A stretch of DNA of 64,000 nucleotides from Oceanibacterium hippocampi (GTDB lineage Bacteria; Pseudomonadota; Alphaproteobacteria; Sneathiellales; Sneathiellaceae). Position 1 is the stretch's first letter. Each line of letters opens with the position of its first letter. This document shows, one piece after another, positions 6,476 to 58,987 of the stretch. The DNA is taken from the NCBI RefSeq assembly GCF_900172325.1, contig NZ_FWFR01000001.1:1628335-1692334 (forward strand), in the 5' to 3' direction. The position numbers were made by a program, and so were the translations under genes. The notes below the pieces were generated by a model. The model searched no databases and had not been told where the DNA came from. It saw nothing but the letters and a program-made list of their open reading frames with translations.

Positions 6476-6499
6476 GCGGGCTGCCGTCCGACCGCCGCT

Positions 6500-7447: not shown

Positions 7448-7453
7448 GAAAAT

Positions 7454-7504: not shown

Positions 7505-7534
7505 TATTCAGAATATTCCCCGACGGCGGAGGCG

Positions 7535-8017: not shown

Positions 8018-8088
8018 TGCGAGCATCGGCGCGACCGAAGGAAGACGAACAACGGTAAACGAGAAACGGTCCGAGGGAGGAACCATCC

Positions 8089-10475: not shown

Positions 10476-10530
10476 GGCGGCGTGCCGCGCCCCGTTCCCC
10501 GGCGCGCCCGCATCCGCTAGGATGCCTTTC

Positions 10531-10851: not shown

Positions 10852-10935
10852 CGCCGGCGCCCGCCAGTCAGTAGCATCCGCGCTTCGATTTGTAACAATC
10901 CGGACTTCACGGAACCGCGCCGGAGACGCCGCGTC

Positions 10936-25011: not shown

Positions 25012-25030
25012 CCGGCCACGGGCGAGCGGC

Positions 25031-27945: not shown

Positions 27946-28619
27946 GGCGCGATCTCCCGGATCAACTGGAACGGTTCGGCGGCGGTGAGGCCGGATTGCG
28001 ATCCCCAGGCCGCCGCCTTGGCGCGCAGCGCCTCGGCCGAGCGCGGATGGGGGAAGGGGCGAAGCTCGCCGTCATAGGCGGCAAGTGCCGCGACCTTGCG
28101 TTCCAGCGTGCCAGAGACATCGGCGAAGACGGTCGGCTGGAAGGGGTGCTGGGGCAGGCCCCAGCCGGTGGCGGAGGGAACCTCGAAGGCGAGGATGCGG
28201 CGCACGGCGGCGCCCGGCAGCGGCCGGCAGGCGGTCAGCACCGCGCGGCTCGTGATCTCGTGGTCGATGTTCAGGTCGCCGGCGAAGTGGGTATAGACGA
28301 CCTCCGGCTGCCAGTCGGCGATCTCCGCCTCGACCACCTTCACGATGTCGAGCAGCGCGACGCTGTCGAAACGGTTGTCGGGGAAATCGTGCAGCCGGAG
28401 CCGGCCGGCGCCGAGGATCGCGGCGGCCTTTTCCGAGGCTTCCCGAAGGGCTGTCCGTTCCGCGGCCGGCACCGCGTCGCGGCTGGCGTGGCGGGCCGAG
28501 AGACCCTCGCCCAGGATCGCGATCGCGACCTCGTCGCCGCGGTCGGCATGGCGGGCGGCAACGGCGCCGGCGCCGAGCACCTCGTCGTCCGGGTGGGCGG
28601 CGACGATGAGGATTCTCAT
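27942..28619 (-). CDS. PIG-L family N-acetylglucosaminyl deacetylase
   Basis: The 225-aa product starts with MRILIVAAHPDDEVLG, the zinc-binding AHPDDE motif of the PIG-L/LmbE family. The third ligand lies in DLNIDHEI near residue 113. It should remove an N-acetyl group from a sugar or sugar nucleotide. The ATG at 28619 overlaps the preceding stop as ATGA, and its own stop overlaps the next start, which shows strict coupling with the ATP-grasp and formyltransferase genes. The frame is open far upstream but runs through other genes there. Confidence 0.88.
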   Translation of the reverse strand: MRILIVAAHPDDEVLGAGAVAARHADRGDEVAIAILGEGLSARHASRDAVPAAERTALREASEKAAAILGAGRLRLHDFPDNRFDSVALLDIVKVVEAEIADWQPEVVYTHFAGDLNIDHEITSRAVLTACRPLPGAAVRRILAFEVPSATGWGLPQHPFQPTVFADVSGTLERKVAALAAYDGELRPFPHPRSAEALRAKAAAWGSQSGLTAAEPFQLIREIAP

Positions 28620-29839: not shown

Positions 29840-30588
29840 AAGTAGAGCCCCCCGTTGACGTTGACGGTCTGGGCGGTGATGTAGCTCGCCTCGTCGCTGG
29901 CCAGGAAGGCGACCGCGTCGGCAACCTCTCGGGCCTCGCCGAGGCGCCCGGCGACGATGCCCGCCGCTGCCTGCTGGACGGCCGCCGACTGCATCCCGGC
30001 CGCCGCCATCTCCGAGCCGATCAGCCCGGCGGCCACCGTGTTGCATCGGACGCCCGACGCCGCGCCGAAGCGGGCGATCACCTGGCCGAGCGAGATCAGC
30101 CCGGCCTTGCTGGCGGCGTAATGCGCGGTGCGCGGCCCGCCGTACTGGCCGCTGACCGAGCCGATATTGACGATCGCGCCGCCGCCGGCCTTCGCCATCC
30201 GGGGCAGCGCCGCCTGGGAGCAGAGGAACGGCCCCTTCAGGTTGACGGCCATGATGCTGTCCCAGTCCGCCTCCTCGATCCGGTCGAAGTCGGTCGGCTT
30301 GTTGATGCCGGCATTGTTGACGAGGATCGAGAGCGGCCCGAAGGTGGCCTCGGCGCCGTCGAGTGCCGCCTCGATCGAGGTGCGGTCGGTCACCTCCATC
30401 GGGAAAGCCGTGGCGCGGCCACCGGCCGACACTATCTCCGCGACGACCGCCGCGGCCGCGTCCCCCTCGACGCGATAGGTCAGCGCGACGGCCGCGCCGG
30501 CTCCCCCCAACCGGATTGCGATGGCCCTGCCGATGCCCCGGCTGCCGCCGGTGACGAAGGCGACCCGGCCCTGAAGATCGATTGCCAT
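29836..30588 (-). CDS. SDR family oxidoreductase
   Basis: The 250-aa classical short-chain dehydrogenase has TGGSRGIGRAIA (cofactor loop), VNNAGIN, the catalytic Ser in IVNIGSVSGQYGG and YAASKAG (Tyr/Lys). It looks like FabG but sits in a sugar operon between transketolase and ATP-grasp genes. A keto-sugar or keto-intermediate reduction is more likely than fatty-acid synthesis. It overlaps the ATP-grasp gene by 4 nt and follows the transketolase C-subunit gene by 3 bp. Confidence 0.88.
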   Translation of the reverse strand: MAIDLQGRVAFVTGGSRGIGRAIAIRLGGAGAAVALTYRVEGDAAAAVVAEIVSAGGRATAFPMEVTDRTSIEAALDGAEATFGPLSILVNNAGINKPTDFDRIEEADWDSIMAVNLKGPFLCSQAALPRMAKAGGGAIVNIGSVSGQYGGPRTAHYAASKAGLISLGQVIARFGAASGVRCNTVAAGLIGSEMAAAGMQSAAVQQAAAGIVAGRLGEAREVADAVAFLASDEASYITAQTVNVNGGLYF

Positions 30589-30591
30589 GGT

Positions 30592-31581
30592 TCAGCCCTT
30601 CCGCTTGCGGGCGATGGCGCGCCGGGCGGCGGCGGCGATATGCGGGCCGGTCAGGCCGTAGGCCTCGGCCAGTTCCTCGGGTTCGCCGGACTCGCCGAAG
30701 CGGTCGCTGACGCCGACGAATTCGACAGGGCAGGGCGTGCCTTCGGCGAGCGCCTCGGCGACCGCGCCGCCGAGCCCGCCGATGACATTGTGGTCCTCTG
30801 CCGTGACGATGGCGCCGGTGTCGCGCGCCGCGCGTTCGACGATCGCGCGGTCGAGCGGCTTGATGGTCGCCATGTTGACGACGCGGGCGGCAATGCCCTC
30901 GGCGGCGAGGATCCCGGCGGCGTCGAGGGCACGGGCGACCTCGACCCCGCAGGCGATCAGGGTGACGTCGGTACCGGGGCGGAGTTCCCGGCCCCTGCCG
31001 ATCCGGAATTCATGGTTGTCGTCGAACAGCACGCGGGCATTGCTGCGGCCGCTGCGCATGTAGACCGGTCCATCATGGGCGAGTACCGCGCGGGTGGCGA
31101 GGCGCATCTCGACCGGGTCGGCCGGCGAGATCACGGTCATGCCGGGCAGCGCCCGGTAGGCGGCCAGGTCCTCGAGCGCCTGGGCCGAGGCGCCGTCCGG
31201 CCCGACATCGAGGCCGGGATGGCTGGCGACGATCTTCACGTTGCGGCGCGGATAGGCGATCTGCAGGCGGGCCTGTTCGAGCGCCCTGAGGGCGAAGACG
31301 GCGAAGGTGGTGACGAAGGGAATCAGCCCGGTCGCCGCCATGCCGCCGGCCGCCGCCATCATGTTCTGCTCGGCGATGCCGAACTGGTAGAAGCGATCCG
31401 GCCAGGCCTTGCGGAAATGGTGCGTGCCGGTGCCGCCGGCGATATCGGCGTCGCAGACCACGAAATCGCTGCGTTCGGCGCCGAGCTCGGCCAGCGCCCG
31501 GCCGAAGGCCTCGCGCAGGCTGTCGCCGCTGGTGCCGATCAGCGCCGGGGCCGCCTCCTTCATCTCAAGCGCGGCCGACAT
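30592..31581 (-). CDS. transketolase-like protein, C-terminal (pyrimidine-binding) subunit
   Basis: The 329-aa protein covers the pyrimidine-binding and C-terminal domains of a transketolase. FYQFGIAEQNMMAAAGGMA near residue 66 contains the catalytic Glu that activates thiamine diphosphate, and ASHPGLDVGPDGASAQ a further conserved loop. It completes the split enzyme with the preceding gene, which it overlaps by 17 nt. Two-subunit transketolases of this type in glycan operons may transfer a two-carbon unit to build an unusual sugar. The substrates are not known. Confidence 0.9.
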   Translation of the reverse strand: MSAALEMKEAAPALIGTSGDSLREAFGRALAELGAERSDFVVCDADIAGGTGTHHFRKAWPDRFYQFGIAEQNMMAAAGGMAATGLIPFVTTFAVFALRALEQARLQIAYPRRNVKIVASHPGLDVGPDGASAQALEDLAAYRALPGMTVISPADPVEMRLATRAVLAHDGPVYMRSGRSNARVLFDDNHEFRIGRGRELRPGTDVTLIACGVEVARALDAAGILAAEGIAARVVNMATIKPLDRAIVERAARDTGAIVTAEDHNVIGGLGGAVAEALAEGTPCPVEFVGVSDRFGESGEPEELAEAYGLTGPHIAAAARRAIARKRKG

Positions 31582-32422
31582 GGCGCCACTCCTCCGTTTC
31601 GGTGTCTTGCGGGCCGAGGTCGGCGAAGGCGTCCGCCATGTTCCGGTCGCTCAGCTTGACGCTGCCGTGCCAGGGCGGGTTGGCCTCCATGTAGGAGACC
31701 CCCTTGCCCTTCACGGTGTGGGCGATGATGACGCTCGGCCGTGCCGTCTCGGCGCGGGCCGCGTCGAGGGCGGCGAGAATCGCGGGGATGTCGTGGCCGT
31801 CGATCTCGGCGACCGCCCAGTTGAAGGCGCGCCAGCGCGCGGCGAGCGGTACCAGGCCGATGATGTTCTCGTTCAGGTCGTCCGACTGCAGCTTGTTGTA
31901 GTCGACAATGGCGCAGAGATTGCCGAGCCGATAATGGGCGGCGCACATCGCGCCCTCCCAGACCTCGCCTTCCTGCAGTTCGCCGTCGCCAAGCAGGGTA
32001 TAGACCCGCGCCGGGTTGCCCTGGTGGCGGAGCCCGATCGCCATGCCGATGGCGGCCGAGAAGCCCTGGCCGAGCGAGCCGGTCGAGGTTTCCACCCAGG
32101 GCAGGTCGAGGACGTGGGGATGGCCCTGGAAGGGGCTGCCGAGCTTGCGCAGGCCGTTCGCCGCGTCGGCGGCGGCAAGGCCGACCGAGGCCGCCGTGGC
32201 ATAGAGCGCCGGGCAGGCATGGCCCTTCGAGAGCACGAAGCGGGCGCGGCTGTCGCGGTTCTCGGCGATGGCGTCGAGGTCGAATTCCCGGCCATAGAGG
32301 CAGGCGAGGATGTCGGCCGCCGAGAGCGATCCGCCCGGGTGGCCCGAGCCGGCGTGGTAGATCGCGTCGAGGCTGCGCCGCCGGATCGAGCGGGCGAGCC
32401 CCTGGAGAGCCTCGATACTCAT
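31565..32422 (-). CDS. transketolase-like protein, N-terminal (ThDP-binding) subunit
   Basis: The 285-aa protein has the transketolase N-terminal domain. HAGSGHPGGSLSAADILA near residue 20 and the ThDP motif GDGELQEGEVWEG followed by NKLQSD (GDG-x(n)-N) bind thiamine diphosphate and Mg. It is half the size of a housekeeping transketolase and pairs with the next gene. Its ATG overlaps the dehydrogenase stop as ATGA. Its place in the island argues for biosynthesis of a special sugar rather than the pentose phosphate pathway. Confidence 0.9.
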   Translation of the reverse strand: MSIEALQGLARSIRRRSLDAIYHAGSGHPGGSLSAADILACLYGREFDLDAIAENRDSRARFVLSKGHACPALYATAASVGLAAADAANGLRKLGSPFQGHPHVLDLPWVETSTGSLGQGFSAAIGMAIGLRHQGNPARVYTLLGDGELQEGEVWEGAMCAAHYRLGNLCAIVDYNKLQSDDLNENIIGLVPLAARWRAFNWAVAEIDGHDIPAILAALDAARAETARPSVIIAHTVKGKGVSYMEANPPWHGSVKLSDRNMADAFADLGPQDTETEEWRHVGRA

Positions 32423-35651: not shown

Positions 35652-35745
35652 GATGGGGGATCACTGGTTACGAATTGGTTTACGAAAAGCCGTCCGGTCG
35701 CCACGGAATCCGCCGGTCCGCGCCGCACAGGGGAAGCCGCCACAG

Positions 35746-36609
35746 ATGCCCGCCACCTTCATCGCCGAAGTCTCCAGCAACCACGCGCGCGACCTCGACC
35801 GCTGCTTCGAATTCGTCGACGTCTCGGCGGCGATCGGCTGCGACGCGGTCAAGTTCCAGCTCTTCCGGCTGGACGAGATGTTCGCGCCCGAGATCCTCGA
35901 GCGGAGCGCGAAGCATCGCGCGCGCCGGGACTGGGAACTGCCGGAGGATTACCTGGCGCCGCTCGCCGCCCGCTGCCGGGAGAAGGGCATCGCCTTTTCC
36001 TGCACGCCCTTTCATCTTGCCGCCGTGCGGGCGCTGGAACCCCATGTCGCCTTCTACAAGATCGCGTCCTACGAACTGCCGTGGGACGGGCTGCTCGCCG
36101 CCGTCGCGGCGACCGGAAAGCCGGTGGTGCTGTCCACCGGGATGGCGACGATGGCCGAAATCCATCACGCGGTCGACGTGCTGCGGACTGGTGGCGCGAC
36201 CGAGGTGACGCTGCTGCACACCGTCTCCGCCTATCCGACACCGCCGGAGGAGGCCAACCTGGCCGCCATCGACACGATCCGTGCGGCGACCGGCTGTGCC
36301 GTCGGCTGGTCCGACCACACGGTGCGGCCGGGCGTCGTCCATCGCGCCATCGGCCGTCACGGGGCGACGATGATCGAGTTCCATCTCGACCTCGACGGCA
36401 AGGGTGCCGAATTCGCCGCCGGCCATTGCTGGCTGCCCGACCAGATCGCCGCGGTGATCGCCGAGGTGCGCGCCGGCGAGGCGGCCGAGGGCAACGGCGA
36501 GAAGGTGCCGACGGCGGCGGAACTGCCCGACCGCGACTGGCGCGCCGACCCGGAGGACGGGCTGCGCCCGTTCCGCAAGATCCGGGCCCGCTGGACTCCC
36601 GATCCGTGA
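35746..36609 (+). CDS. NeuB/PseI-like nonulosonate synthase lacking the SAF domain
   Basis: The 287-aa protein has the NeuB TIM barrel: FIAEVSSNHARDLDRCF at the start (metal and PEP region), DAVKFQLFR, YKIASYELPW and VGWSDHT near residue 185 with a metal-binding His. Such enzymes condense PEP with a 6-deoxy-hexosamine to make pseudaminic or legionaminic acid. Family members are usually near 345 aa with a C-terminal antifreeze-like SAF domain; here that domain is absent. The ATG at 35746 gives the conserved N-terminus. GTGA coupling to the next gene supports a sugar-acid pathway. Confidence 0.86.
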   Translation: MPATFIAEVSSNHARDLDRCFEFVDVSAAIGCDAVKFQLFRLDEMFAPEILERSAKHRARRDWELPEDYLAPLAARCREKGIAFSCTPFHLAAVRALEPHVAFYKIASYELPWDGLLAAVAATGKPVVLSTGMATMAEIHHAVDVLRTGGATEVTLLHTVSAYPTPPEEANLAAIDTIRAATGCAVGWSDHTVRPGVVHRAIGRHGATMIEFHLDLDGKGAEFAAGHCWLPDQIAAVIAEVRAGEAAEGNGEKVPTAAELPDRDWRADPEDGLRPFRKIRARWTPDP

Positions 36610-38375
36610 CCGTCGCGGCGATCGTCCAGGCACGCATGGGGTCGAGCCGGTTTCCCGGCAAGAGCCTCGCGCGCCTCGCCGGCCAACCCCTGATCTGGCA
36701 CCTGGTGCATCGTCTCGGACAGGCGCGGTCGGTCGGTCGGATCGCCGTCGCGACCAGCGACCGGCCGGCCGACGATCCGCTGGCGGCCTATTGCGAAAGT
36801 CTCGGCGTCACGGTCGTTCGCGGCCCCGAGGACAACGTGCTCGAACGCTACCTGCTGGCCGCCGGGAAACTGGAGGCAAGGATCGTGATCCGGGTCACCG
36901 GCGACGCCCCGCTGATCGACCCCCTGCTGATCGACCGGCTGGTCGCGCGCCTCGACGAAGCGGGGACGGAGACCGTCGGCCTGATCCCGGGCACGCCCTG
37001 CATCCATGAAGGCGTCGATATCCTGACCCGTGGCGCGCTTGACCGGCTGCGCGACGAGGCCGGTGACGACCCGGTCGCGCGCGAGCATGTGACCGGCTAT
37101 TTCGGCCGCCACCCGGACTTCGCGAGCCGCGCCGAGATCGATCTGGAGGAATTCCTCCAGTATGACGGCGCCCGGGTGTCGGTAGATACCCCGGACGACC
37201 TCGAATTCCTCGAAACGCTTTACCGGCGGAGCGGCGCCGCGGCCGGCGAACTGGACCTCCGCGCCGTCGTGCGGCTGCTCCGGGCGGACCCGGCGCTTAC
37301 CCGCATCAACGGCCATGTCCGCCAGAAGCCGCTCGTCGAAAGCAGCCGCCATGTCATCGTCCGTTGCGACGGCGGCGGCGAACTCGGCCTCGGCCATGTC
37401 CGCCGGGGGCTTGCGGTCGCCGGGCCGCTGCGCGACATCCACGGCTTCGGCGTCCGCTTCGCGGTCGCCCGCGACGACGCGGTCCGTTCGATGATCGGGG
37501 CGGCCGGGTTCCCGGTCGACCGCCTGCCTGACGGCGATGGCGCGGATGAGGCGCTCTCCCGCCTTGCCGGGGCGCCGGGCGCGGTCGCGATCCTCTTCGA
37601 CCTGCGCGGCGCGATGTCGGCGGCTGCGGTCTCGGGACTGCGCGCGGGCGGGCTGCTCACCGCCGCGATCGACGATGGCAGCGAACGGCGGCTCGCCGTC
37701 GATCTCGCCTTCTATCCGCCGGTGCCCCAGGTCGCGGCGCTCGACTGGGCCGCTGCGGCCGGTGACATTCGCGTCGGCTGGGAATGGGCGGTGCTGGGCG
37801 GTGGCGGGGCGGCGGCACCGTCGGCCCGAAGCGGCGGGCGGCCGCATGTCCTGGTCTCGATGGGCGGCACGGATCCGATGGCGCTGACCGAGCCGGCGAC
37901 GCGCGCACTCGTCGGCATAGAGGCCGACGTCACCGTGGTGATCGGGCCGGGATTCGCCGACGGCGAACGGCTGGCCGGGCGTCTTGCCGCGCTGTCGCCG
38001 TCGATCCGGGTCGCGGCCGCGCCGAAGAACCTGGCCGGCCTTGCCGCCGGTGCCGACCTGGCGCTGATTTCCTACGGGGTCACGGCCTTCGAACTCGCCC
38101 GGGCCGGGGTGCCGGCGCTTTACCTCTGCCTGACCGGGGATCACCGGGCCTCGGCCAGCGCCTTCGAGGCGGCCGGCATGGGCCGGGTGCTGGGGCTGGC
38201 GGAAGATGTCGGCGGAGATGCAATCCGCGCCGCGGTGACGGCGTTGCTGGCCGATCCGGACGGGCGACGGGCGATGGCCGCGACCGGGCCCAAGCTGATC
38301 GACGGGCGGGGCGCGGAACGGATCGCGGAGGCGATTGCCCGGCGGCTGTCGGTCAGCGCGCCGGCAGCGTCTTGA
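36606..38375 (+). CDS. cytidylyltransferase (SpsF/PseF-like) fused to PseG-like sugar-nucleotide hydrolase
   Basis: The 589-aa product joins two pathway enzymes. Residues 1-235 are an SpsF/CMP-sugar-synthetase-like domain (AIVQARMGSSRFPGKSLARL, VTGDAPLIDP). Residues about 247-589 are PseG-like (RCDGGGELGLGHVRRGLAV, then VSMGGTDPM). PseG removes UDP from UDP-2,4-diacetamido-altrose, and the cytidylyltransferase activates the final nonulosonate with CTP, so both activities of one pathway lie in one chain. The start is a GTG overlapping the synthase stop as GTGA. It converges with the TPR gene, with 23 bp of 3' overlap. Confidence 0.88.
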   Translation: MTVAAIVQARMGSSRFPGKSLARLAGQPLIWHLVHRLGQARSVGRIAVATSDRPADDPLAAYCESLGVTVVRGPEDNVLERYLLAAGKLEARIVIRVTGDAPLIDPLLIDRLVARLDEAGTETVGLIPGTPCIHEGVDILTRGALDRLRDEAGDDPVAREHVTGYFGRHPDFASRAEIDLEEFLQYDGARVSVDTPDDLEFLETLYRRSGAAAGELDLRAVVRLLRADPALTRINGHVRQKPLVESSRHVIVRCDGGGELGLGHVRRGLAVAGPLRDIHGFGVRFAVARDDAVRSMIGAAGFPVDRLPDGDGADEALSRLAGAPGAVAILFDLRGAMSAAAVSGLRAGGLLTAAIDDGSERRLAVDLAFYPPVPQVAALDWAAAAGDIRVGWEWAVLGGGGAAAPSARSGGRPHVLVSMGGTDPMALTEPATRALVGIEADVTVVIGPGFADGERLAGRLAALSPSIRVAAAPKNLAGLAAGADLALISYGVTAFELARAGVPALYLCLTGDHRASASAFEAAGMGRVLGLAEDVGGDAIRAAVTALLADPDGRRAMAATGPKLIDGRGAERIAEAIARRLSVSAPAAS

Positions 38376-39951
38376 GAATGCCCTCGACCACCTGGAAGGC
38401 CTCACGCCAGTTCGCCCCGCGCGGCCGGGCGATGATCCGGCAGGACGGGTAGAACGGCTCGTAATCCCTGCCGAGATTGGTCCAGCCGCAATCGTTCAGC
38501 AGCTTGTAGGTCGGCGTGCCGAGCGCGGCCGACATGCTGGCGACGGCGTTCGGCGCGCTGATCACCGCGTCGAGCCCGGCCATGAGGGCCAGCGTGCGGT
38601 CGATATCCTGCTTCTGGTCGAGCTTCGGCGGGACATGGACATTGGCCCCGGTGCGCGCCTTGAAGGCGGCGATTTCCTCGGCGCAGTCGTCGTATTGCAG
38701 GTTCACGAAGACCGTACCGGGCCGCGAGACGAGCTTTTCCCAGTGGCTCGTCGGCGCATATTGCCGGTCGCGCTCGGCGCCCTTGCGGCCGCTGCGCCAG
38801 CTGATCCCGATCTTGCGGCCGGGGCCGAGCGTCGACAGCCAGGCGCGCCAGTCACGCGTCGCCTCCGGATCGGCTTTCAGATAGGCATGCGGTTTCGGGA
38901 AATCCTCGATCCTGTTGCGATAGAATCGGGGCAGGCTGCCGAGTTCGATATAGCGGTCGGCGCCGCCCGCGTCGGGTAGCCAGGGGTACCGGAACAGATA
39001 CTCGTTCGGCGTCTCGGTCTGCACCGCGCCGGCGAACGGGATGCCCGGGAAGGAGCGTTCCAGCGCCGGGCGGAGCCGGACGTCGCATTCGACGACCAGG
39101 CTGCCGGCATCGGCCACGACCTCTGGGAGGATGCCGTAGAACGCGATCTGGTCGCCGATGCCCTGCTCGACGCAGACCAGCAGGCGCTTGCCGGGGATCT
39201 TCCGTCCGTCCCAGCGTTTCAGCCCGTCCAGCGTCCGCCGCACCGGCTTGCCCGCCTGCAGGCGCCATTCATACTCCCGCCAGCCACGCTTCGTGTCGCC
39301 GGTCAGCAGCATCAGCAACGCCCGGTTGAGACGCAGCTGGCCGTTCTTCGGCGCCGCCTTGACCGCCTTGTCGTATAGCTGCAGCGCGGCCGGGAAATCG
39401 CGGCGCTGGGCGGTCAGCGAGGCGAAGTTGGCGAGTGCGGCAAAGTGGTTCGGACGGAGCCGCAGGGCTTCCTGGAAGAAGGTTCCGGCGCTCTCCTCGT
39501 CGCCTTGCAGCAGCACCGTCGAGCCGAGCGCATCCCACAGGTCGGGTGACGAGGCGTCGCGCAGGAGTTCGGCCTGGAGCAGGTCGACGGCGGCCCCGAA
39601 ACGGCTCAACTGGCGGAGATGCTTGGCCAGGGTGCCGATCACATAGACCCGGTTCCAGCCGGTCTGGAGACAGCGGTTGTAAAGCTCGATCGCATTGTCG
39701 GCCATGCCCATGTCGCGGGCCGCGTTGGCAAGCGCGAACAGCGCGGCCGGGTCGTTCGGGCGGGTCTTGAGGGCCTCTTCGAAACAGACGATCGCCTCGT
39801 GATACTTGCCGCGCTCGGCGAACACCATTCCTAGGCGATAGGGGTCGTCGACCGGCAGGCCGGTGACCGTCGCGCCGCCCTCCGCCTTGCGCCCGGTGGA
39901 CGCGACGGAGACGAGCGGACTGGCAGCAATTTTTCGCCGAACCCTGACCAT
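38353..39951 (-). CDS. TPR protein with glycosyltransferase-9-like C-terminal domain
   Basis: This 532-aa protein has about five TPR units (residues about 33-240, with repeated AxxFxEALRLRPN-type helices such as GTFFQEALRLRPNH). A C-terminal GT-B domain follows, with LLVCVEQGIGDQIAFYGILP near residue 265 and ISAPNAVASMSAALGTP near 485, as in family GT9 or flagellin-glycosylating TPR transferases. It is a strong candidate to attach the island's sugar to a protein such as flagellin. It is transcribed alone and its start region diverges from the phosphoramidate operon. Confidence 0.83.
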   Translation of the reverse strand: MVRVRRKIAASPLVSVASTGRKAEGGATVTGLPVDDPYRLGMVFAERGKYHEAIVCFEEALKTRPNDPAALFALANAARDMGMADNAIELYNRCLQTGWNRVYVIGTLAKHLRQLSRFGAAVDLLQAELLRDASSPDLWDALGSTVLLQGDEESAGTFFQEALRLRPNHFAALANFASLTAQRRDFPAALQLYDKAVKAAPKNGQLRLNRALLMLLTGDTKRGWREYEWRLQAGKPVRRTLDGLKRWDGRKIPGKRLLVCVEQGIGDQIAFYGILPEVVADAGSLVVECDVRLRPALERSFPGIPFAGAVQTETPNEYLFRYPWLPDAGGADRYIELGSLPRFYRNRIEDFPKPHAYLKADPEATRDWRAWLSTLGPGRKIGISWRSGRKGAERDRQYAPTSHWEKLVSRPGTVFVNLQYDDCAEEIAAFKARTGANVHVPPKLDQKQDIDRTLALMAGLDAVISAPNAVASMSAALGTPTYKLLNDCGWTNLGRDYEPFYPSCRIIARPRGANWREAFQVVEGILKTLPAR

Positions 39952-40138: not shown

Positions 40139-42628
40139 ATGTTTCCCCTGCGATCGATCATTTCGGAACCGCATGTCGACCAACCGCTGAAAGAGCGGTT
40201 GCCCGCCAACGTTCCGTGGGGTGTCGCGGCCCGCGCACGCCGGGATTTCCGCTTCGGCAGTAAGGCCGAGACCCTGCTGGCGCTTGCGCCCACGTTGCAT
40301 CGCGCCCGGATCCTCGATCTCCGCCATTTCACCGTCCAGCGCTGGCAGGCCGAGCGCGAACTGGTCGTGCGCGAAGTGCAGGCGGCCTTTCCCCGGCAGC
40401 GTCTCGTGGTCCGTTCCAGCGCCATCGGCGAGGACGGAGACGCCGCCTCGATGGCCGGCGCCTATCGTTCCTGCCTCGGCGTCGAATCCGCCAACCGGGT
40501 GGTGCTCGCCACCGCGATCGACGCGGTCGTGCAATCCTATGGGGGCGATCCGCGCGACCAGGTGCTGGTGCAGCCGATGCTGGACGACATCGCACTGTCC
40601 GGCGTCGCCATGACCCGCAACCTCGACGACGGCGCGCCCTATTACGTCATCAATTACGACGACGAATCCGGCAAGACCGACACCATTACCGGCGGCACCG
40701 GGGTCAACAAGACCGTGCTCGTGCATCGCCGGAGCCGGCCCGACCATATCGAATCGCCCCGCATCGCGCAGATCGTCGAGGGCCTGCGCGAGATCGAGCG
40801 GGTCGTCGGCACGCTGCCGCTCGATGTCGAGTTCGGCCTCGACCGGAGCGGCCTGCTGCATGTCTTCCAGGTCCGCCCGATCGCGGCGCGCACGCGCTGG
40901 CGGCCCGAGACGGCGGCCGAAATCGACGGTCAGCTCGCCGCGGCCGAACGCTTCATCGCCGAACGCTCCGCGCCGCGCGACGGTCTGCTCGGCCGGCGCA
41001 CCGTGCTCGGCATCATGCCGGACTGGAATCCGGCCGAGATGATCGGCACGACGCCGCGTCCGCTTGCCGCCTCGCTCTATCGCCGGCTGATCACCGCGCG
41101 GGTCTGGGCCGAGGCCCGGGAAAGCATGGGCTATCGCGGCGTTCCGGGCGAGGAGCTGATGGTGATGATCGGCGGCCGCCCCTATATCGACGTCCGCTGC
41201 TCGTTCAATTCGCTGCTGCCGGCGGCGCTGGCGCCCGAGACCGGCGCCCGGCTCGTCGACGCCTGGGTCGACCGGCTTGCCGCCCATCCGGAGTTTCACG
41301 ACAAGGTCGAGTTCGAGGTCGCCCAGACCTGCCTGGACTTCGGCTTCTCCGGAACCTTCGAGGCGCGCTATGCGGGACTGCTCGGCGCGGCCGAGCGGGA
41401 CAGTTTCGTCGAGGCGCTCGGCTGCCTGACCGAGCGGGCCCTGGAACCGGGCGCGGGCGGAAGCCTGGCGCGTGCCGAGAATGCCGTCGCCACGCTCCAT
41501 GCGGCGCAGCACCGGCGCGGTCCGCTGCCGACCGGGAATGCCGGCAGTCACGCGACGATCGCCGCCATCGTGCGGCTGATCGCGGAAGCCCGGGAGTTCG
41601 GAACCCGGCCCTTCGCCGTCCTCGCCCGTCACGGCTTCATCGCCGAAAGCCTGCTCCGGAGCGCCGTCGCCCGCGAGGCGCTGACGCCCGCGCGGCTGAA
41701 TCTCTTCAAGGCCGGCATCCGCACCGTCGGCGGCGCGCTCGCCAGCGATCTCGCCGAGGTGCTAAACGGGTCCGGCGCGCGGGCGGACTTCGTCGAACGC
41801 TACGGTCATCTCCGGCCTGGCACCTACGACATCACCTCGGCGCGCTACGCCGATCGCAGCGACCTGTTCGAGACCGGCCGGGTGCCGCCACTGGCCCCCG
41901 CGCCCGAGGCGTTCGAGCCGACGGCGGCCGAGATCCGCGCCATCGACCTGCTGCTTGCCGAGACCGGTGTCGGCTCGGTCGACGCGGCCGGTCTGTTCGC
42001 CTATGCGCGGCGCGCCATCGTCGGCCGGGAGTTCGGCAAGTTCATCTTCACCCGCAATCTCTCGGACCTGCTGGAACTGGTCGCGGCCTGGGGCGCGGCG
42101 CACGATCTGGACCGGGAGGCGCTCTCCCATCTCGTCATCGACGACCTGCTCGAGCTTGCCGTCGCGCCGCCGCTCGGCGAACTCGGCCACTGGCTCGCTG
42201 AGCGGGTCGCCGCCGGACGCCGTCGCACCGCCGAGGCGCGGGCGCTCAAGCTCAGCTACCTGATCCGCGATGCGCACGATCTCTACGTCGTGCCGCTGCA
42301 TCGCAGCGCGCCGAACTTCATCGGCGCCGGCCGCGTCGAGGCGCCGGTGGTGGCGCTCGACGCCCATGGCGACGGCCGCGCGCTGGCCGGCCGGGTGGTC
42401 TGCATCGAGAACGCCGATCCGGGGTTCGACTGGATCTTCTCCCGCGGGATCGCCGGCCTGGTCACCAAGTTCGGCGGCCCGAACTCGCACATGGCGATCC
42501 GCTGCGCCGAATTCGGCCTGCCGGCCGCGATCGGCTGCGGCGAGCAGGTCGTCGACCGCATCGTCCGGCACGGCCTGGTCGAGCTCAATTGCGCGGAAAA
42601 GTTGCTCCGCCCGCTGACCGGGGGCTGA
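40139..42628 (+). CDS. L-glutamine kinase-like dikinase (PEP-synthase family; MeOPN pathway step 1)
   Basis: The 829-aa protein begins with FGSKAETLLAL near residue 39 and an ATP-grasp-like PPDK_N region (VVRSSAIGEDGDAASMAGAY near 85). A helical middle domain follows. It ends in a PEP-utiliser swivel domain with the phospho-His in GGPNSHMAIRCAE (His about 784). There is no PEP-binding barrel, so it is not PEP synthase. This domain order is that of Cj1418 of Campylobacter jejuni, which phosphorylates the amide of L-glutamine with ATP (AMP plus Pi), and of rifampin phosphotransferase. Four downstream genes match the rest of the Cj1415-1419 pathway. An ATG at 40097 is the alternative start. Confidence 0.82.
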   Translation: MFPLRSIISEPHVDQPLKERLPANVPWGVAARARRDFRFGSKAETLLALAPTLHRARILDLRHFTVQRWQAERELVVREVQAAFPRQRLVVRSSAIGEDGDAASMAGAYRSCLGVESANRVVLATAIDAVVQSYGGDPRDQVLVQPMLDDIALSGVAMTRNLDDGAPYYVINYDDESGKTDTITGGTGVNKTVLVHRRSRPDHIESPRIAQIVEGLREIERVVGTLPLDVEFGLDRSGLLHVFQVRPIAARTRWRPETAAEIDGQLAAAERFIAERSAPRDGLLGRRTVLGIMPDWNPAEMIGTTPRPLAASLYRRLITARVWAEARESMGYRGVPGEELMVMIGGRPYIDVRCSFNSLLPAALAPETGARLVDAWVDRLAAHPEFHDKVEFEVAQTCLDFGFSGTFEARYAGLLGAAERDSFVEALGCLTERALEPGAGGSLARAENAVATLHAAQHRRGPLPTGNAGSHATIAAIVRLIAEAREFGTRPFAVLARHGFIAESLLRSAVAREALTPARLNLFKAGIRTVGGALASDLAEVLNGSGARADFVERYGHLRPGTYDITSARYADRSDLFETGRVPPLAPAPEAFEPTAAEIRAIDLLLAETGVGSVDAAGLFAYARRAIVGREFGKFIFTRNLSDLLELVAAWGAAHDLDREALSHLVIDDLLELAVAPPLGELGHWLAERVAAGRRRTAEARALKLSYLIRDAHDLYVVPLHRSAPNFIGAGRVEAPVVALDAHGDGRALAGRVVCIENADPGFDWIFSRGIAGLVTKFGGPNSHMAIRCAEFGLPAAIGCGEQVVDRIVRHGLVELNCAEKLLRPLTGG

Positions 42629-42632
42629 AGAG

Positions 42633-43274
42633 ATGTTGCGTCTCGGTCTCACCATGCGCTGCGCCCGGGCCGAGGGTTACGACGAGCCGCGCGACGCGCT
42701 GGCCCGCGATTGGCAGGACTTCATGGCCTTCGCGCTGCCCGAGGCGCGCTGGCTGCCGATTCCCAACATCGGTGCCGAGGCGGCCGCCTATGCCGACGAT
42801 CTCGGGCTCGAGGGGGTGATCTTCACCGGCGGCGACGATCTCGGCGCCGAGCCCCGGCGCGATGCCACCGAGCAGGCGCTGGCCGGCTACCTGGAGGCGC
42901 ACGGCCTGCCGGCCTTCGGCGTCTGCCGGGGCCTGCAGTTCCTGCAGGTCGCGGCCGGGGGGACGCTCGCCGCGGAACCGCTGGACGGTCACGTGGCGAC
43001 CCGGCATCGGCTCCGCCTGGTCGATGGCGCGGGCCGCCCGGGTGCGTCCATCGAGGTCAATTCCTATCACCGGAACGGGGTCCGGCTGGAGGCGCTCGCC
43101 CGCCCCTACCAGGCGCTGGCGGTGACCGACGACGGCCTGGTGGAGGCGTTTCGCGACGAGGCGCGGCGGTGTCTCGCGGTGATGTGGCATCCGGAGCGGG
43201 AGAGGCCGTTCAGCGCCTTCGACCGGCGCCTGGTGCGCGACTTGTTCCTGACGCGATTGGGGGTGGTGGCATGA
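42633..43274 (+). CDS. glutamine-amidotransferase-class hydrolase (gamma-glutamyl-CDP-amidate hydrolase-like; MeOPN pathway)
   Basis: The 213-aa protein is a class I glutamine amidotransferase/peptidase C26 domain with FGVCRGLQFLQ (nucleophile Cys near residue 96) and MWHPERE (catalytic His and Glu). In C. jejuni, Cj1417 of this type cleaves gamma-glutamyl-CDP-amidate to glutamate and cytidine diphosphoramidate. It is 4 bp after the kinase gene and overlaps the cytidylyltransferase gene by ATGA. A gamma-Glu-GABA hydrolase (PuuD) role is possible by family but does not fit the operon. Confidence 0.83.
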   Translation: MLRLGLTMRCARAEGYDEPRDALARDWQDFMAFALPEARWLPIPNIGAEAAAYADDLGLEGVIFTGGDDLGAEPRRDATEQALAGYLEAHGLPAFGVCRGLQFLQVAAGGTLAAEPLDGHVATRHRLRLVDGAGRPGASIEVNSYHRNGVRLEALARPYQALAVTDDGLVEAFRDEARRCLAVMWHPERERPFSAFDRRLVRDLFLTRLGVVA

Positions 43275-44083
43275 GCATGCCGAAGGGTTTGATTCTGGCG
43301 GCCGGTCGCGGTTCGCGCATGGGCACGCTGACCGAGGAGATGCCCAAGGGGCTGGCGCCGCTGGCCGGGCGCAGCCTGATCGCCTGGCAGGAGGCGGCGC
43401 TCGCCCGGGCCGGCATCGAGCCGGTCGCGCTGGTCACGGGATACCAGGCGGAGCGGCTCGCGAAGAAGGGCCGCACCTGTTTCCACAACCCGCGCTGGGC
43501 CTCGACCAACATGGTGATGTCGCTGGCGGCGGCCGACGAATGGATGGCCGAGGGCGATACCATCGTTTCCTATTCCGACATCGTCTATCACCCGGATATC
43601 CCGGCGGCGCTGGCCGCCGCCGAGGGCGACATCGCGATCACCTACGACCGGGACTGGGCGGCGCTCTGGGATCTTCGCTTCGACCGCCCGCTGCTGGACG
43701 CGGAAAGCTTCGAATGCCGGGACGGCCGGCTGGTCGATATCGGCCGGCGGGTCCGCTGCAAGGGTGCGGTCGGCGGCCAGTACATGGGACTGGTGAAATT
43801 CTCGGCCGCCGGCTGGGGCCTCGTCTCCTACCTGCTCGGCGGCATGATGCCGGAGGTGCGCGACCGCCTCGACATGACCGCACTGCTCCGCGAACTGCTG
43901 GCGCTGGGCCAGCCGATCGTCACCGTTCCGGTCGACGGCCGCTGGCTCGAGGTCGACAGCGGCGAGGATCTCGCCGCCTACGAGGCGCGCCTGAAGCAGA
44001 AGGCGGCCTGGAGCCATGACTGGCGCTGGAAGACGCAGGGCGTCGGGGCGGCCGCGTCGCTTGAAGCCACGACCGCCGGTTAA
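43271..44083 (+). CDS. nucleotidyltransferase (CTP:phosphoglutamine cytidylyltransferase-like; MeOPN pathway)
   Basis: The 270-aa product has the sugar-nucleotidyltransferase start GLILAAGRGSRMGTLT and the EMPKGLAPLAG lysine motif, with YSDIVYHPDI near residue 99 and EVDSGEDLAAYE near 236 as metal-binding positions. This is the LicC/phosphocholine-cytidylyltransferase-like group that includes Cj1416, which transfers CMP to L-glutamine phosphate. The ATG overlaps the hydrolase stop. A phosphocholine or sugar-phosphate substrate is the alternative, but the gene order favours the phosphoramidate route. Confidence 0.83.
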   Translation: MSMPKGLILAAGRGSRMGTLTEEMPKGLAPLAGRSLIAWQEAALARAGIEPVALVTGYQAERLAKKGRTCFHNPRWASTNMVMSLAAADEWMAEGDTIVSYSDIVYHPDIPAALAAAEGDIAITYDRDWAALWDLRFDRPLLDAESFECRDGRLVDIGRRVRCKGAVGGQYMGLVKFSAAGWGLVSYLLGGMMPEVRDRLDMTALLRELLALGQPIVTVPVDGRWLEVDSGEDLAAYEARLKQKAAWSHDWRWKTQGVGAAASLEATTAG

Positions 44084-44171
44084 GCCGCCGGTAACCATAC
44101 TAGCGCTATCACCGGATGAAGACGAGACGGAAGCGGCGCCAGCACGCGCCCGGTCACCAGAAGGAACAGGC

Positions 44172-44915
44172 ATGATCCGCGTCGAGTGGGACTATACCGA
44201 TCTGGCCGCAGCCTACGACAAGCGGGCCGACTACAGCGATCAGGCGCTCGACCGGATGCTCCGGGCGATGGCGCTTGCGCCCGGCCGCCCGGTCGCCGAT
44301 CTCGGCGCCGGCACCGGCAAGCTCACCGTCCCGCTCGCCCGCCGAGGCTACCGGGTCTTCGCGGTCGAACCGAACGACGCGATGCGGGGGTTCGGCATCC
44401 GCAACAGCGAGGGCTTCGGCGTGCAATGGTCGCAGGGCACCGGCGAGGCGACCGGCCTCGGCGACGCCGGCGTGCAGGCGGTCTTCTTCGGCTCCTCGTT
44501 CAATGTCGTCGACCAGCAGGCGGCGCTCGACGAGACCCTGCGCATCCTCACCCCCGGCGGCTGGTTCGCCTGCATGTGGAACCACCGCGATCTCGACGAG
44601 CCGCTGCAGGTCGCGGTCGAAGAGGTTATCCGGCGCTTTGCCCACTCCTATGATTACGGCGAACGGCGGCGCGATCCCTCGGGCCATGTCGAGAGCCATG
44701 GCGGCTTCCATCCGGTTCAGCATGTCGAGGGCCGCTTCGATGTCACCATGCCGGCGGCGGAATGGGTCGAGGCATGGCGCAGTCACGCCACGCTGGCCCG
44801 CCAGACCGGCGGCCGCTTCGACGAAGCGATTTCGGCGATCGGCGGAATCGTCGCCGGGCGCGAGTTGGTGACCGTGCCCTATGCGACGCGGATCTGGTTC
44901 GCCCGCGCCCGCTGA
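44172..44915 (+). CDS. class I SAM-dependent methyltransferase (candidate phosphoramidate O-methyltransferase)
   Basis: This 247-aa methyltransferase has VADLGAGTGKLTVPLARRGY near residue 42 (SAM loop), AVEPNDAM and a conserved GGWFACMWNHRDL segment near 127. The ATG at 44172 has AGGAACAGG upstream; the open frame before it is probably not translated. In C. jejuni the genes Cj1419 and Cj1420 beside the glutamine kinase are methyltransferases that supply the O-methyl of MeOPN. Here one such gene lies between the cytidylyltransferase and the CysC-like kinase. A sugar methylation role is the alternative. Confidence 0.85.
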   Translation: MIRVEWDYTDLAAAYDKRADYSDQALDRMLRAMALAPGRPVADLGAGTGKLTVPLARRGYRVFAVEPNDAMRGFGIRNSEGFGVQWSQGTGEATGLGDAGVQAVFFGSSFNVVDQQAALDETLRILTPGGWFACMWNHRDLDEPLQVAVEEVIRRFAHSYDYGERRRDPSGHVESHGGFHPVQHVEGRFDVTMPAAEWVEAWRSHATLARQTGGRFDEAISAIGGIVAGRELVTVPYATRIWFARAR

Positions 44916-44966
44916 CAACGGAACGCGCAACGGAGCCCGGCCGCTTGCGGCCGGGAACGCCAGCCG

Positions 44967-45518
44967 ATGACACAACATCCCGAAAGCGCCGCGCTGACCG
45001 GTAACGGGCGCGTGCTCTGGCTGACCGGCCTGTCCGGGACCGGCAAGTCGACGCTCGCCCGAATTCTCGATGCGCGGCTCCGCGACGACGGCGCCCTGCC
45101 TGTCCTGCTCGACGGCGACGAACTGCGCGCCGCGATCGGCGACGGCACGGCGGGCTATGACCGGGACGGCCGGCGTCGCAATGCCTGGCGGATTGCCCGC
45201 CTGGCCGCCCTGTTCGGCAACCAGGGCCACCTCGTCATCGTCGCGACGATGTCGCTGTTCCACGAGATCCACGCCTGGAACCGGTTCCATCAGCCGGGTT
45301 ACCTGGAAATCCTGCTGGAGGCCGATCTCGCGACCCTCGCCGGGCGCGATCCGAAGGGGCTTTACCGTCGCCACGCGGCTGGCGACGAGCGCCATGTCGG
45401 CGGCCTCGACCTCGCCGTCGAACTGCCGGAAAAGCCTGATCTCCGCCTTGTCACCGACAGCGGCGCGAGCCCGGCCGATCTCGCCGAACGGGTGCTCGCC
45501 GCGCTCGGCCGCGGCTAG
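44967..45518 (+). CDS. CysC-like kinase (cytidine diphosphoramidate kinase-like; MeOPN pathway)
   Basis: The 183-aa P-loop kinase of the APS-kinase family has LTGLSGTGKSTLARIL (Walker A), LLDGDELRAAIG and RDPKGLYRRHAAGDERHVGG near residue 129, the family's lid-type motif. No other sulfate-assimilation gene lies nearby. In C. jejuni the CysC-annotated Cj1415 instead phosphorylates the 3'-OH of cytidine diphosphoramidate. Its place at the end of the operon with the other four homologs supports that role. True APS kinase activity, feeding the adjacent sulfotransferase, is the main alternative. Confidence 0.8.
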   Translation: MTQHPESAALTGNGRVLWLTGLSGTGKSTLARILDARLRDDGALPVLLDGDELRAAIGDGTAGYDRDGRRRNAWRIARLAALFGNQGHLVIVATMSLFHEIHAWNRFHQPGYLEILLEADLATLAGRDPKGLYRRHAAGDERHVGGLDLAVELPEKPDLRLVTDSGASPADLAERVLAALGRG

Positions 45519-46603
45519 ACGGCCCGCCAGCTCCGGCAGGCGTCCGGCCAGGCGCGGGCGAAGGCGGCGGCGTCATCCACGACCTCGCGGCGGACCGGTT
45601 CCCGCGTCGCCGCATCCCCCGGCGAACGGCGCAGGGGCTGCGCGGCCGCGCGGACCTGTTCGACGAAGGCCAGGTAGCGATCGAAGGACCGCATGACCAG
45701 GCGGTCGGGATCCCGCGCCCCGGCGATGGCCTCGCGATAGGCGGGGGGCATCGCGTACCAGCTCCGCGCGCTGACGAAGACACCGAGCTCGGGCGGCAGG
45801 CAATGGAAGGCATCGCCCGGCAGCGGGATTTCCAGCGAGCCACGGCAAAGCGGGTCGCTCGCCCTCGGGAAGAAACCGAGCTCCAGTGGAAAGCCGTCGA
45901 GCAGCGGACGTTCGCGAAAGCCGAAGGCCCGCTGCAGCAGCAGGTCCGTGCCCGGGTTGCCGGGGCCGTCGGCGGCGGCCGGGGAAAGCCCGTCGAGACC
46001 GAGGAGGGCGGCGATCGCGGTGAGTGTCCGGGGCAGCCTTTCCGGGTCGAGGTCGGTGAAATCGCCGATCAGGCGCTCGCCGCCCAGTTCCGCGTGGGCG
46101 GCGAGCTGTTCGCCGTAGCGGCCGAGATAGCGGTAGGCGCGGGCGGCCTCGGCGAGCGTCATCGGCTCGTCCCGGGCATAGAGGTCGGATGGCGCCGCGC
46201 CGGCCAGCAGTCGCCCGGCGAAGAACATCTCCAGGTAGGTGTTGTAGACCGAGACGATGTTCTCGACCGGATCGCGGGCAAACAGGATCAGCGGCGCGTC
46301 CGTCCGCAGGATCGACGCGAGGGTCGCCGCGGTGTGCCCGGGAAGCTGTTCGGCGCGGGCGCAATTGTGGTGGATCAGCCCCGGCACCCGGCCGTCCAGC
46401 GCCAGTGGCGGATGGGCCTGCCAGGCGAACGGGCCGCGCGGCCTGAACAGCGCCTCGGCATCGCCGTTGGCGAGCGCAAGATCGGAATGCTCGAACGGCG
46501 GCACGTGAATCGGGCCGGCGCGGTTGAGCGCCAGGTAGAGCGAGAAGGTGCCCTGCCGGCCGTGCGAGAGCACCAGGAAACGGAAGGCCGGGTCCGTGCT
46601 CAA
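45515..46603 (-). CDS. sulfotransferase-fold protein, possible phosphoramidate or sulfo transferase
   Basis: The 362-aa protein has a P-loop-like 5' nucleotide motif (LSHGRQGTFSLYLAL at residues about 12-26) and FARDPVENIVSVYNTYLE near 115, the RDP-x-x-x-x-x-S 3'-phosphate-binding motif of sulfotransferases. It should bind a nucleotide with 5' and 3' phosphates, normally PAPS. The operon that converges on it ends in a kinase that may produce a 3'-phosphorylated CDP-amidate, so the enzyme may move either sulfate or phosphoramidate. The start is a TTG overlapping the DUF2937 stop. The stops of the two convergent genes overlap by 4 bp. Confidence 0.72.
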   Translation of the reverse strand: MSTDPAFRFLVLSHGRQGTFSLYLALNRAGPIHVPPFEHSDLALANGDAEALFRPRGPFAWQAHPPLALDGRVPGLIHHNCARAEQLPGHTAATLASILRTDAPLILFARDPVENIVSVYNTYLEMFFAGRLLAGAAPSDLYARDEPMTLAEAARAYRYLGRYGEQLAAHAELGGERLIGDFTDLDPERLPRTLTAIAALLGLDGLSPAAADGPGNPGTDLLLQRAFGFRERPLLDGFPLELGFFPRASDPLCRGSLEIPLPGDAFHCLPPELGVFVSARSWYAMPPAYREAIAGARDPDRLVMRSFDRYLAFVEQVRAAAQPLRRSPGDAATREPVRREVVDDAAAFARAWPDACRSWRAV

Positions 46604-58880: not shown

Positions 58881-58987
58881 GTCGCCTTCCATCGTTCCCC
58901 GGCCGCGGCCACTGCCCGGCCGGCCGATCGCGGGTGCCTTTCCGAGAGCGGTTCATTGCCCGCCGCACATGTGCTAAATCTTGGCCC

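What the first reader, a model, noticed from the sequence alone, without database searches (positions are those of the whole stretch)
40139..45518. Complete O-methyl phosphoramidate (MeOPN) biosynthesis-like operon in an alphaproteobacterium
Five consecutive plus-strand genes encode a PEP-synthase-family dikinase with no PEP barrel, a class I glutamine-amidotransferase hydrolase, a LicC-like nucleotidyltransferase, a SAM methyltransferase and a CysC-like kinase. These are the enzyme families of Campylobacter jejuni Cj1418, Cj1417, Cj1416, Cj1419/1420 and Cj1415. There they convert L-glutamine, ATP and CTP to 3'-phospho-CDP-amidate for capsule phosphoramidate. The order 1418-1417-1416 is kept, and the last two junctions among those three genes are 4 bp or overlapping. 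Seen: genes, motifs and order. Known: the C. jejuni pathway. Inferred: that this organism decorates its pseudaminate-type glycan with phosphoramidate.
Basis: partly seen in the sequence, partly recalled or inferred. Interest (0 to 1): 0.92.

Follow-up and report, generated by a model that had tools for sequence, protein, structure and literature searches.

The report
Phosphoramidate donor cassette plus candidate transferase
This bacterium appears to carry the set of enzymes that a gut bacterium uses to make a rare phosphorus-nitrogen tag for its sugar coat, and the gene next door may be the enzyme that attaches the tag, a step whose mechanism is still open.

Summary
Five plus-strand genes (40139-45518) encode a barrel-less dikinase, an amidotransferase-type hydrolase, a LicC-type nucleotidyltransferase, a methyltransferase and a CysC-like kinase. 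It is no chance row: of 67 dikinase loci with enough flanking DNA, 56 also carry hydrolase, nucleotidyltransferase and kinase, 22 of these the methyltransferase too. The dikinase belongs to NF004508, not to PEP synthases or rifamycin phosphotransferases; the kinase stands apart from true APS kinases, the genome's own CysNC included. Best reading: the cassette makes 3'-phospho-CDP-amidate from glutamine, ATP and CTP, like C. jejuni Cj1415-Cj1418. I could not compare the C. jejuni proteins themselves, and the hydrolase misses NCBI's cut-off (80 of 250 bits).

Sulfotransferase-type ORFs occur in 24 of 97 other loci, one fused to the cassette kinase. I propose that such proteins transfer phosphoramidate from a 3'-phospho donor, as sulfotransferases use PAPS; for the window gene itself the evidence is weak. 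Methylation and a pseudaminate acceptor remain inferences.

The parts
40139..42628 (+). Dikinase of the NF004508 (PRK05849) family; proposed L-glutamine kinase (ATP-grasp N-domain, phospho-His mobile domain, no PEP barrel). Alternative ATG at 40097.
   Evidence: NF004508 874.9 bits (cut-off 501); PPDK_N 83-133; PEP-utilizers 751-806; His784 invariant in 15 of 15
42633..43274 (+). Class I glutamine-amidotransferase-type hydrolase; proposed gamma-glutamyl-CDP-amidate hydrolase
   Evidence: Peptidase_C26 78 bits; best NCBIfam NF045546 80 bits, below its cut-off of 250; triad C98/H186/E188
43271..44083 (+). LicC-type nucleotidyltransferase; proposed CTP:phosphoglutamine cytidylyltransferase; overlaps the hydrolase by 4 bp
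   Evidence: (NTP_transf_3 63 bits; phosphocholine cytidylyltransferase 1jyk E 9e-7)
44172..44915 (+). SAM-dependent methyltransferase of a family found in 26 of 96 cassette loci; proposed to O-methylate the phosphoramidate
44967..45518 (+). CysC-like kinase, distinct from true APS kinases; proposed CDP-amidate 3'-kinase
   Evidence: (PRK05541 149 bits, cut-off 127; apsK 112.5, cut-off 138.7 not met)
45515..46603 (-). Possible, very divergent sulfotransferase-like protein (362 aa, first start codon TTG), convergent with the kinase gene (ends overlap by 4 bp); candidate phosphoramidate transferase
   Evidence: for: (E 0.0081); against:
38353..39951 (-). TPR protein, divergent from the dikinase; its C-terminal part looks glycosyltransferase-like by eye; context, membership not claimed
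35653..38375 (+). Context: NeuB/PseI-family synthase (35653-36609) and a CTP_transf_3 + PseG-like protein (about 36615-38375), nonulosonate biosynthesis; NCBI's equivalog cut-offs (NnaB, PseI, PseG) are not met

Best explanation
The cassette makes an activated phosphoramidate, and a sulfotransferase-type protein attaches it to a surface glycan. Steps: (1) the dikinase phosphorylates the side-chain amide N of L-glutamine, using ATP and a phospho-His intermediate; (2) the nucleotidyltransferase joins N-phosphoglutamine to CMP from CTP; (3) the amidotransferase-type hydrolase removes glutamate, leaving CDP-amidate; (4) the CysC-like kinase phosphorylates the 3'-hydroxyl, giving 3'-phospho-CDP-amidate, the cytidine counterpart of PAPS; (5) a sulfotransferase-type protein (here possibly 45515-46603) transfers the phosphoramidate to a sugar hydroxyl and releases cytidine 3',5'-bisphosphate, as sulfotransferases release PAP; (6) the methyltransferase makes the O-methyl ester, on donor or product. 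Shown here: families, order, conserved catalytic residues, wide co-occurrence, a kinase group apart from APS kinases, one natural kinase-sulfotransferase fusion. Taken over from the C. jejuni pathway: steps 1-4. Inferred: steps 5-6 and the acceptor. The confidence given is for steps 1-4 serving a surface glycan; step 5 is scored in the section on the most novel reading.
For: Dikinase in NF004508, 874.9 bits against at most 41.3 for PEP synthase models. The hydrolase's best NCBIfam family is gamma-glutamyl-CDP-amidate hydrolase, as for 6 of 6 other cassette hydrolases scanned. Of 67 loci with at least 3.5 kb on both sides: hydrolase 63, nucleotidyltransferase 63, kinase 57, all three 56, methyltransferase as well 22; dikinase-hydrolase-nucleotidyltransferase in a row in 51. 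A separate true APS kinase exists in the own genome and in 13 of 15 other dikinase-bearing genomes (a match above 190 bits besides a weaker one). Kinase tree: the 16 canonical domains plus one stray kinase (L091, 5 kb from its cassette) share a branch of length 2.88, SH-aLRT 100. Two Phe that I recall as the APS adenine sandwich are present in 16 of 16 canonical domains; here they are Tyr64 and Val144. Fusion L081: APS_kinase 113.9 bits + Sulfotransfer_1 92.3 bits. Sulfotransferase-type ORFs: 31 in 24 other loci, 20 of them within 310 bp of, or overlapping, a cassette gene. C. jejuni chemistry as stated in PMC11800397 (passages).
Against: No C. jejuni sequence was compared. The hydrolase scores 80 of the 250 bits NCBI asks for, and that model rings below its cut-off in 14 of 14 control genomes, so the match alone is weak (the genome's other three matches have 27 bits or less). 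NF004508 rings in 11 of 14 controls at E <= 0.001, in none at E <= 1e-40. Glutamine-binding residues could not be tested. The sixth gene has no Pfam, NCBIfam or PDB sequence match, a profile comparison of 4.4% probability, no relative but itself in 289 class genomes (E <= 1e-8) and 25 order genomes (E <= 1e-3), none in plasmids or viral contigs, and a weak fold model (pLDDT 51). In 48 of 67 fuller loci no sulfotransferase-type ORF was found within 6 kb; association with the kinase gene is not significant (18 of 19 against 40 of 48, p 0.43). In 3 of 67 loci the dikinase stands alone (L029, L079, L097).
Confidence: 0.72

Rival explanations
1. The cassette makes the donor as above, but the sixth gene is an ordinary (if divergent) PAPS sulfotransferase or unrelated; the phosphoramidate transferase is encoded elsewhere, as a protein of the Cj1421/Cj1422 type.
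For: In C. jejuni Cj1421 and Cj1422 are the transferases (PMC3907429, passages) and I do not know their fold. The genome has its own CysNC, hence PAPS, and 7 Sulfotransfer_3 matches, none of them the window gene. Sulfotransferase-type genes are common: 38 of 53 genomes at E <= 0.01. The window gene's family assignment is weak.
Against: Natural fusion of cassette kinase and sulfotransferase domain; nearness to cassette genes of 20 of 31 ORFs; at least 5 of the 42 Sulfotransfer_3 matches in 13 alphaproteobacterial genomes lie within 5 kb of the dikinase or kinase gene (G232 two, G219, G146, G110), about 0.1 expected by length alone (my arithmetic, whose row list was cut). I ran no control with polysaccharide loci that lack the cassette, so this may only reflect glycan loci in general.
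Confidence: 0.4
2. The core makes CDP-amidate or its 3'-phosphate for a small secreted phosphoramidate, not for a glycan decoration.
For: An Agrobacterium vitis plasmid has dikinase-hydrolase-nucleotidyltransferase followed by a LysE exporter and a CDP-alcohol phosphatidyltransferase. Small natural products with P-N bonds are known (PMC6429109, abstract start and passages).
Against: The window cassette lies near glycan genes (NeuB-, PseG-, Polysacc_synt_2- and DegT-family); the genes directly on either side of it are neither an exporter nor a CDP-alcohol transferase by Pfam.
Confidence: 0.1
3. A different substrate: the dikinase phosphorylates another amide or a sugar, and the LicC-type enzyme makes a CDP-alcohol or CDP-sugar.
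For: COG1213 cytidylyltransferases use phosphosugars, phosphocholine, phosphoglycerate and phosphoglutamine, and Cj1416 itself is promiscuous with Mn (PMC12275187, passages). The NCBI hydrolase cut-off is not met.
Against: Regular company of an amidotransferase-type hydrolase with a kept Cys-His-Glu triad, which fits a gamma-glutamyl intermediate best.
Confidence: 0.12
4. The CysC-like gene serves sulfate activation (PAPS) and its place here is incidental.
For: APS_kinase Pfam 103 bits; a relative on an Azospirillum plasmid is annotated adenylyl-sulfate kinase.
Against: Own CysNC at 223 bits elsewhere; separate group in the tree; residue differences at positions 64, 98, 105, 144, 148; apsK cut-off not met.
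Confidence: 0.05

Closest known systems
Campylobacter jejuni O-methyl phosphoramidate (MeOPN) pathway, Cj1415-Cj1418 (transferases Cj1421/Cj1422; Cj1419/Cj1420, recalled as methyltransferases, have no assigned function in PMC11800397)
   Different: One methyltransferase instead of two; a convergent sulfotransferase-like gene; hydrolase below the NCBI cut-off; near nonulosonate genes. Cj1421/Cj1422 relatives and kps capsule genes were not searched for.
PAPS synthesis and sulfotransferases (CysC plus Sulfotransfer_1/3)
   Same: A P-loop kinase expected to add a 3'-phosphate, next to a sulfotransferase-type protein in some loci; fused in L081
   Different: Kinase group and nucleotide-pocket residues differ; donor base expected to be cytosine and transferred group phosphoramidate
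PEP synthase, PPDK and rifampin phosphotransferase
   Same: ATP-grasp domain and phospho-His mobile domain
   Different: No PEP barrel; scores far below the cut-offs (41.3 of 598 for the best PEP synthase model, 34.5 of 999 for rifamycin phosphotransferase)
Xanthomonas campestris LOS phosphoramide group (PMC8042644, passage)
   Same: Another P-N decoration of a surface glycan
   Different: Its biosynthesis was not compared here

Membership tests
L-glutamine kinase (Cj1418 type) | Member of the barrel-less dikinase family NF004508, not of PEP synthase or rifampin phosphotransferase | tested here: met
   874.9 bits, cut-off 501. That Cj1418 itself belongs to NF004508 was not tested.
L-glutamine kinase (Cj1418 type) | ATP-dependent N-phosphorylation of glutamine; glutamine-binding residues | not testable with these tools
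   No structure or residue list at hand
gamma-glutamyl-CDP-amidate hydrolase NF045546 | Score at or above the curated cut-off of 250 bits | tested here: not met
   80 bits; six other cassette hydrolases have 52-123 bits, so the cut-off may be drawn narrowly
gamma-glutamyl-CDP-amidate hydrolase NF045546 | Cys-His-Glu triad and best family match | tested here: met
   but the model rings below cut-off in 14 of 14 control genomes
CTP:phosphoglutamine cytidylyltransferase (Cj1416 type) | COG1213/LicC-type fold with use of CTP and phosphoglutamine | tested here: inconclusive
   LicC-type by sequence; substrate not testable
CDP-amidate 3'-kinase (Cj1415 type) | APS-kinase family but distinct from true APS kinases | tested here: met
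   Cj1415 itself not compared
Adenylyl-sulfate kinase (true CysC) | apsK equivalog cut-off 138.7 bits; Phe at both nucleotide-pocket positions (pocket role recalled) | tested here: not met
   112.5 bits; Tyr64 and Val144 where 16 of 16 canonical domains have Phe
C. jejuni MeOPN locus | Transferase related to Cj1421/Cj1422 | not tested
Sulfotransferase superfamily (gene 45515-46603) | Pfam Sulfotransfer match; 5'-PSB loop and RxPxxxxxS motif | tested here: inconclusive
   Motifs by a regex written after seeing this gene; own HMM E 0.0081, short of my 1e-3 threshold; no Pfam match; Foldseek's first 47 rows are sulfotransferases, E 2.3e-3 or worse, with a model steered by sulfotransferase rows

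The most novel reading that the evidence does not exclude
A branch of the sulfotransferase superfamily has been turned into phosphoramidate transferases that read a 3'-phospho-cytidine donor made by a CysC-derived kinase, so that evolution built a cytidine/phosphoramidate copy of the PAPS system. The core cassette is a module shared across many bacterial phyla whose tailoring partner has been swapped at least five times between a methyltransferase and a formyltransferase-like pair, which implies phosphoramidate decorations not yet described.
Probability: 0.45. Interest if true: 0.88.

Novelty: new variant of a known kind. Interest (0 to 1): 0.72.

Why it matters
P-N bonds in biology are rare, and a 2022 review calls the glutamine kinase C. 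jejuni-specific (PMC9561416, passage). The data here say that the cassette is spread over many phyla, so that MeOPN-like decoration may be far commoner than Campylobacter. They also give a concrete candidate answer to an open point, how the group is transferred: a 2025 paper speaks only of a likely donor (PMC11800397, passage). In C. jejuni many phages recognise this group (PMC9561416, passage), so the same may hold elsewhere.

Tried and rejected
Rejected: PEP synthase or rifampin phosphotransferase identity; true APS kinase. A hit above the NF045546 cut-off in other cassettes: none in the 6 hydrolases scanned. The first Pfam scan of upstream ORFs took 10 ORFs of which at least 8 are not the coding frame; it found nothing, and a GC3-based gene choice led. 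Homologues of the sixth gene: none. Single-sequence fold: useless, pLDDT 38. A first mixed alignment (A3) misplaced the loop motif; A4 was used for the second fold job. HMM-based hydrolase and nucleotidyltransferase counts are spoiled by ORFs inside the dikinase and are not used; one search uses blastp hits. The broad motif regex gave 15 ORFs against 10.3 in shuffles and is uninformative; the strict one gave 2 against 0.2, but it was written after seeing the window gene. Sulfotransferase-type ORFs with the methyl subtype: 11 of 22 against 8 of 45, Fisher p 0.009, but phylogenetically independent pairs give median p 0.125, so not claimed. Literature: the Taylor/Raushel primary papers are not held; passages on Legionella longbeachae and phage CP39 had no bearing.


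Full report
What is there. The window lies in a 4.83-Mb genome in 18 contigs. Pfam and NCBIfam assign them as described.

Dikinase. It scores 874.9 bits to NF004508 (cut-off 501, 'hypothetical protein'), against 41.3 bits for the best PEP synthase model and 34.5 for rifamycin phosphotransferase. Only the ATP-grasp and mobile His domains are found; there is no barrel. In 15 aligned sequences the His of GGxxSHMAxR and the ATP-grasp residues K42, R92, E231, Q244 and R246 are invariant. Own genome counted, the family was found in 2 of 60 relatives and in 18 of 385 genomes of the class at E <= 1e-40, 17 over cut-off; in none of the 24 other genomes of the same family, some of them incomplete; and in 15 plasmid records, 14 of them over at least 80% of the query. 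The sample is therefore biased towards dikinases close to the window's. None of the 80 is a Campylobacter, and I found no way to its sequences.

Cassette. Of 96 loci, within 6 kb: hydrolase 86, nucleotidyltransferase 85, kinase 73, methyltransferase 26. Of the 67 with at least 3.5 kb on both sides: 63, 63, 57 and 22; all of dikinase, hydrolase, nucleotidyltransferase and kinase in 56; the first three in a row in 51; dikinase alone in 3. The window's order of the five occurs in 7 of 96: window, L038, L039, L051, L063, L064, L084 (with 0.8 and 1.3 kb of other DNA inside in L051 and L084).

Kinase. The own genome also has a CysNC-type APS kinase at 223 bits, the cassette one having 103. Of 15 other dikinase-bearing genomes, 13 have a match above 190 bits besides a weaker one; G151 and G212 have only a weaker one, and in G302 and G212 the weaker one lies on another contig than the dikinase. 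Against 16 canonical domains, the 74 kinases of the loci (the stray L091 copy and a fragment included) differ at several positions: Asn105 in 65 of 74 (canonical Ala 14 of 16), Phe98 in 69 (Tyr 14 of 16), Val144 in 55 (Phe 16 of 16), Tyr or His at 64 in 60 and Phe in 12 (Phe 16 of 16). From recall, without a paper at hand (one search found none), the two Phe sandwich the adenine of APS; their loss would fit a cytosine base. In a quick tree the canonical domains and one stray kinase (L091, 5 kb from its cassette) form one side of a long branch with SH-aLRT 100.

Sixth gene. 45515-46603 on the minus strand overlaps the kinase gene's end by 4 bp. It has no Pfam, NCBIfam or PDB sequence match. By eye it has a P-loop-like SHGRQGTFSLYL and RDPVENIVSVYN; a strict motif pair, written after seeing it, finds only it and L101 among the neighbour ORFs above 200 aa (0.2 expected from shuffles). 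A profile grown from neighbours of other cassettes collects 31 ORFs in 24 of 97 loci at E < 1e-3; the window gene is next at 0.0081. Fifteen of the 31 were sent to Pfam: all 15 hit a sulfotransferase model at E <= 0.1, 12 above a gathering score. Twenty of 31 lie within 310 bp of, or overlap, a cassette gene, methyltransferase counted. In L081 (Verrucomicrobia) one ORF holds APS_kinase (113.9 bits) and Sulfotransfer_1 (92.3 bits), and it groups with the window's kinase in a 7-row starred set. On an Azospirillum plasmid an 838-residue protein carries the kinase at its C-terminus behind an N-terminal part with sulfotransferase-like motifs read by eye; neither Pfam nor my own profile recognises that part. 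Results against: hhalign probability 4.4%; single-sequence model pLDDT 38; with 12 sulfotransferase-type rows pLDDT 51, pTM 0.52. Foldseek's first 47 rows are sulfotransferases, best E 2.3e-3, query TM 0.25-0.36, but those rows steered the model. So the window gene's family is a fair guess, not proven.

Subtypes. In the 67 fuller loci the methyltransferase (22) and a formyltransferase-like gene (31) never meet (0 loci, p 2e-8); the latter comes with a roughly 190-aa partner without a Pfam match in 29 of 31, and a CDP-glycerol-glycerophosphotransferase-like gene occurs only there (14 of 14). On a quick tree of 66 dikinases the methyl and formyl labels need at least 5 changes. The core thus looks like a module with exchangeable tailoring, which supports the methyltransferase as part of it. 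The Fisher values ignore kinship.

Literature. PMC11800397 (passages): Cj1415-Cj1418 make CDP-phosphoramidate 3'-phosphate from glutamine, ATP and CTP; Cj1419 and Cj1420 have no assignment; Cj1421 and Cj1422 are needed for the decoration. PMC9561416 (passages): the kinase is called C. jejuni-specific; the group can occur with or without methyl. PMC12660748 (passage): a Borg element encodes proteins related to MeOPN production, so another occurrence has been noticed. A search for phosphoramidate + sulfotransferase + capsule + Campylobacter gave no paper; the listings show no survey of the cassette outside Campylobacter that I recognised by title or abstract start. Only openly licensed papers were searched.

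Context. Upstream lie a Polysacc_synt_2 protein (23959-25068, PseB-type by my reading), a DegT aminotransferase (22740-23954, PseC-type by my reading), a NeuB/PseI-family synthase (35653-36609) and a cytidylyltransferase-PseG-like protein (to 38375), so a nonulosonate glycan is probably made nearby; that it is the acceptor is inference from position only.

Verdict. By families and order a counterpart of the C. jejuni phosphoramidate donor pathway, widespread rather than unique, with a testable new idea for the transfer step.

Noticed in passing
L053 7637-8977; L101 6702-7784; L072 14265-15365; formyltransferase-like gene in 31 of 67 fuller loci: Second cassette subtype: a formyltransferase-like protein and a roughly 190-aa protein without Pfam match, fused to each other in L053, the small one fused to the kinase in L101 and L072 by eye, in place of the methyltransferase.
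   Followed up: partly
L160 (Agrobacterium vitis plasmid) 5956-11045: Core of three genes followed by a LysE exporter and a CDP-alcohol phosphatidyltransferase, no kinase annotated in the stretch: perhaps a small secreted phosphoramidate made from CDP-amidate directly.
   Followed up: no
L157 7266-10364 and L162 5449-8349: Dikinases with long N-terminal extensions on plasmids; in L157 the extension looks by eye like a second nucleotidyltransferase domain.
   Followed up: no
L081 9834-11279: Natural fusion of the cassette kinase with a Sulfotransfer_1 domain in a Verrucomicrobia contig.
   Followed up: yes
L029, L079, L097: Dikinases of this family without hydrolase, nucleotidyltransferase or kinase nearby; L097 has a formyltransferase-like gene 3.5 kb away.
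   Followed up: no
MT837632.1 (L156) 679-3006: An unverified 'Bacteriophage sp.' record from human faeces encodes a relative of the dikinase over 95% of its length (33% identity); it may be bacterial DNA.
   Followed up: no
window 27001-32422 (-): Formyltransferase with both domains, ATP-grasp protein with LAL_C2 domain, short-chain dehydrogenase and a split transketolase pair beside the nonulosonate genes.
   Followed up: no
window 57363-58892 (-): Sulfatase-family hydrolase about 11 kb from the sixth gene.
   Followed up: no
G001-G024: None of 24 other genomes of the same family has the dikinase at E <= 1e-40, so the cassette is sporadic there.
   Followed up: partly
L030 11051-12829: Sulfotransferase domain behind an alpha/beta-hydrolase domain in one ORF next to the cassette kinase.
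   Followed up: no
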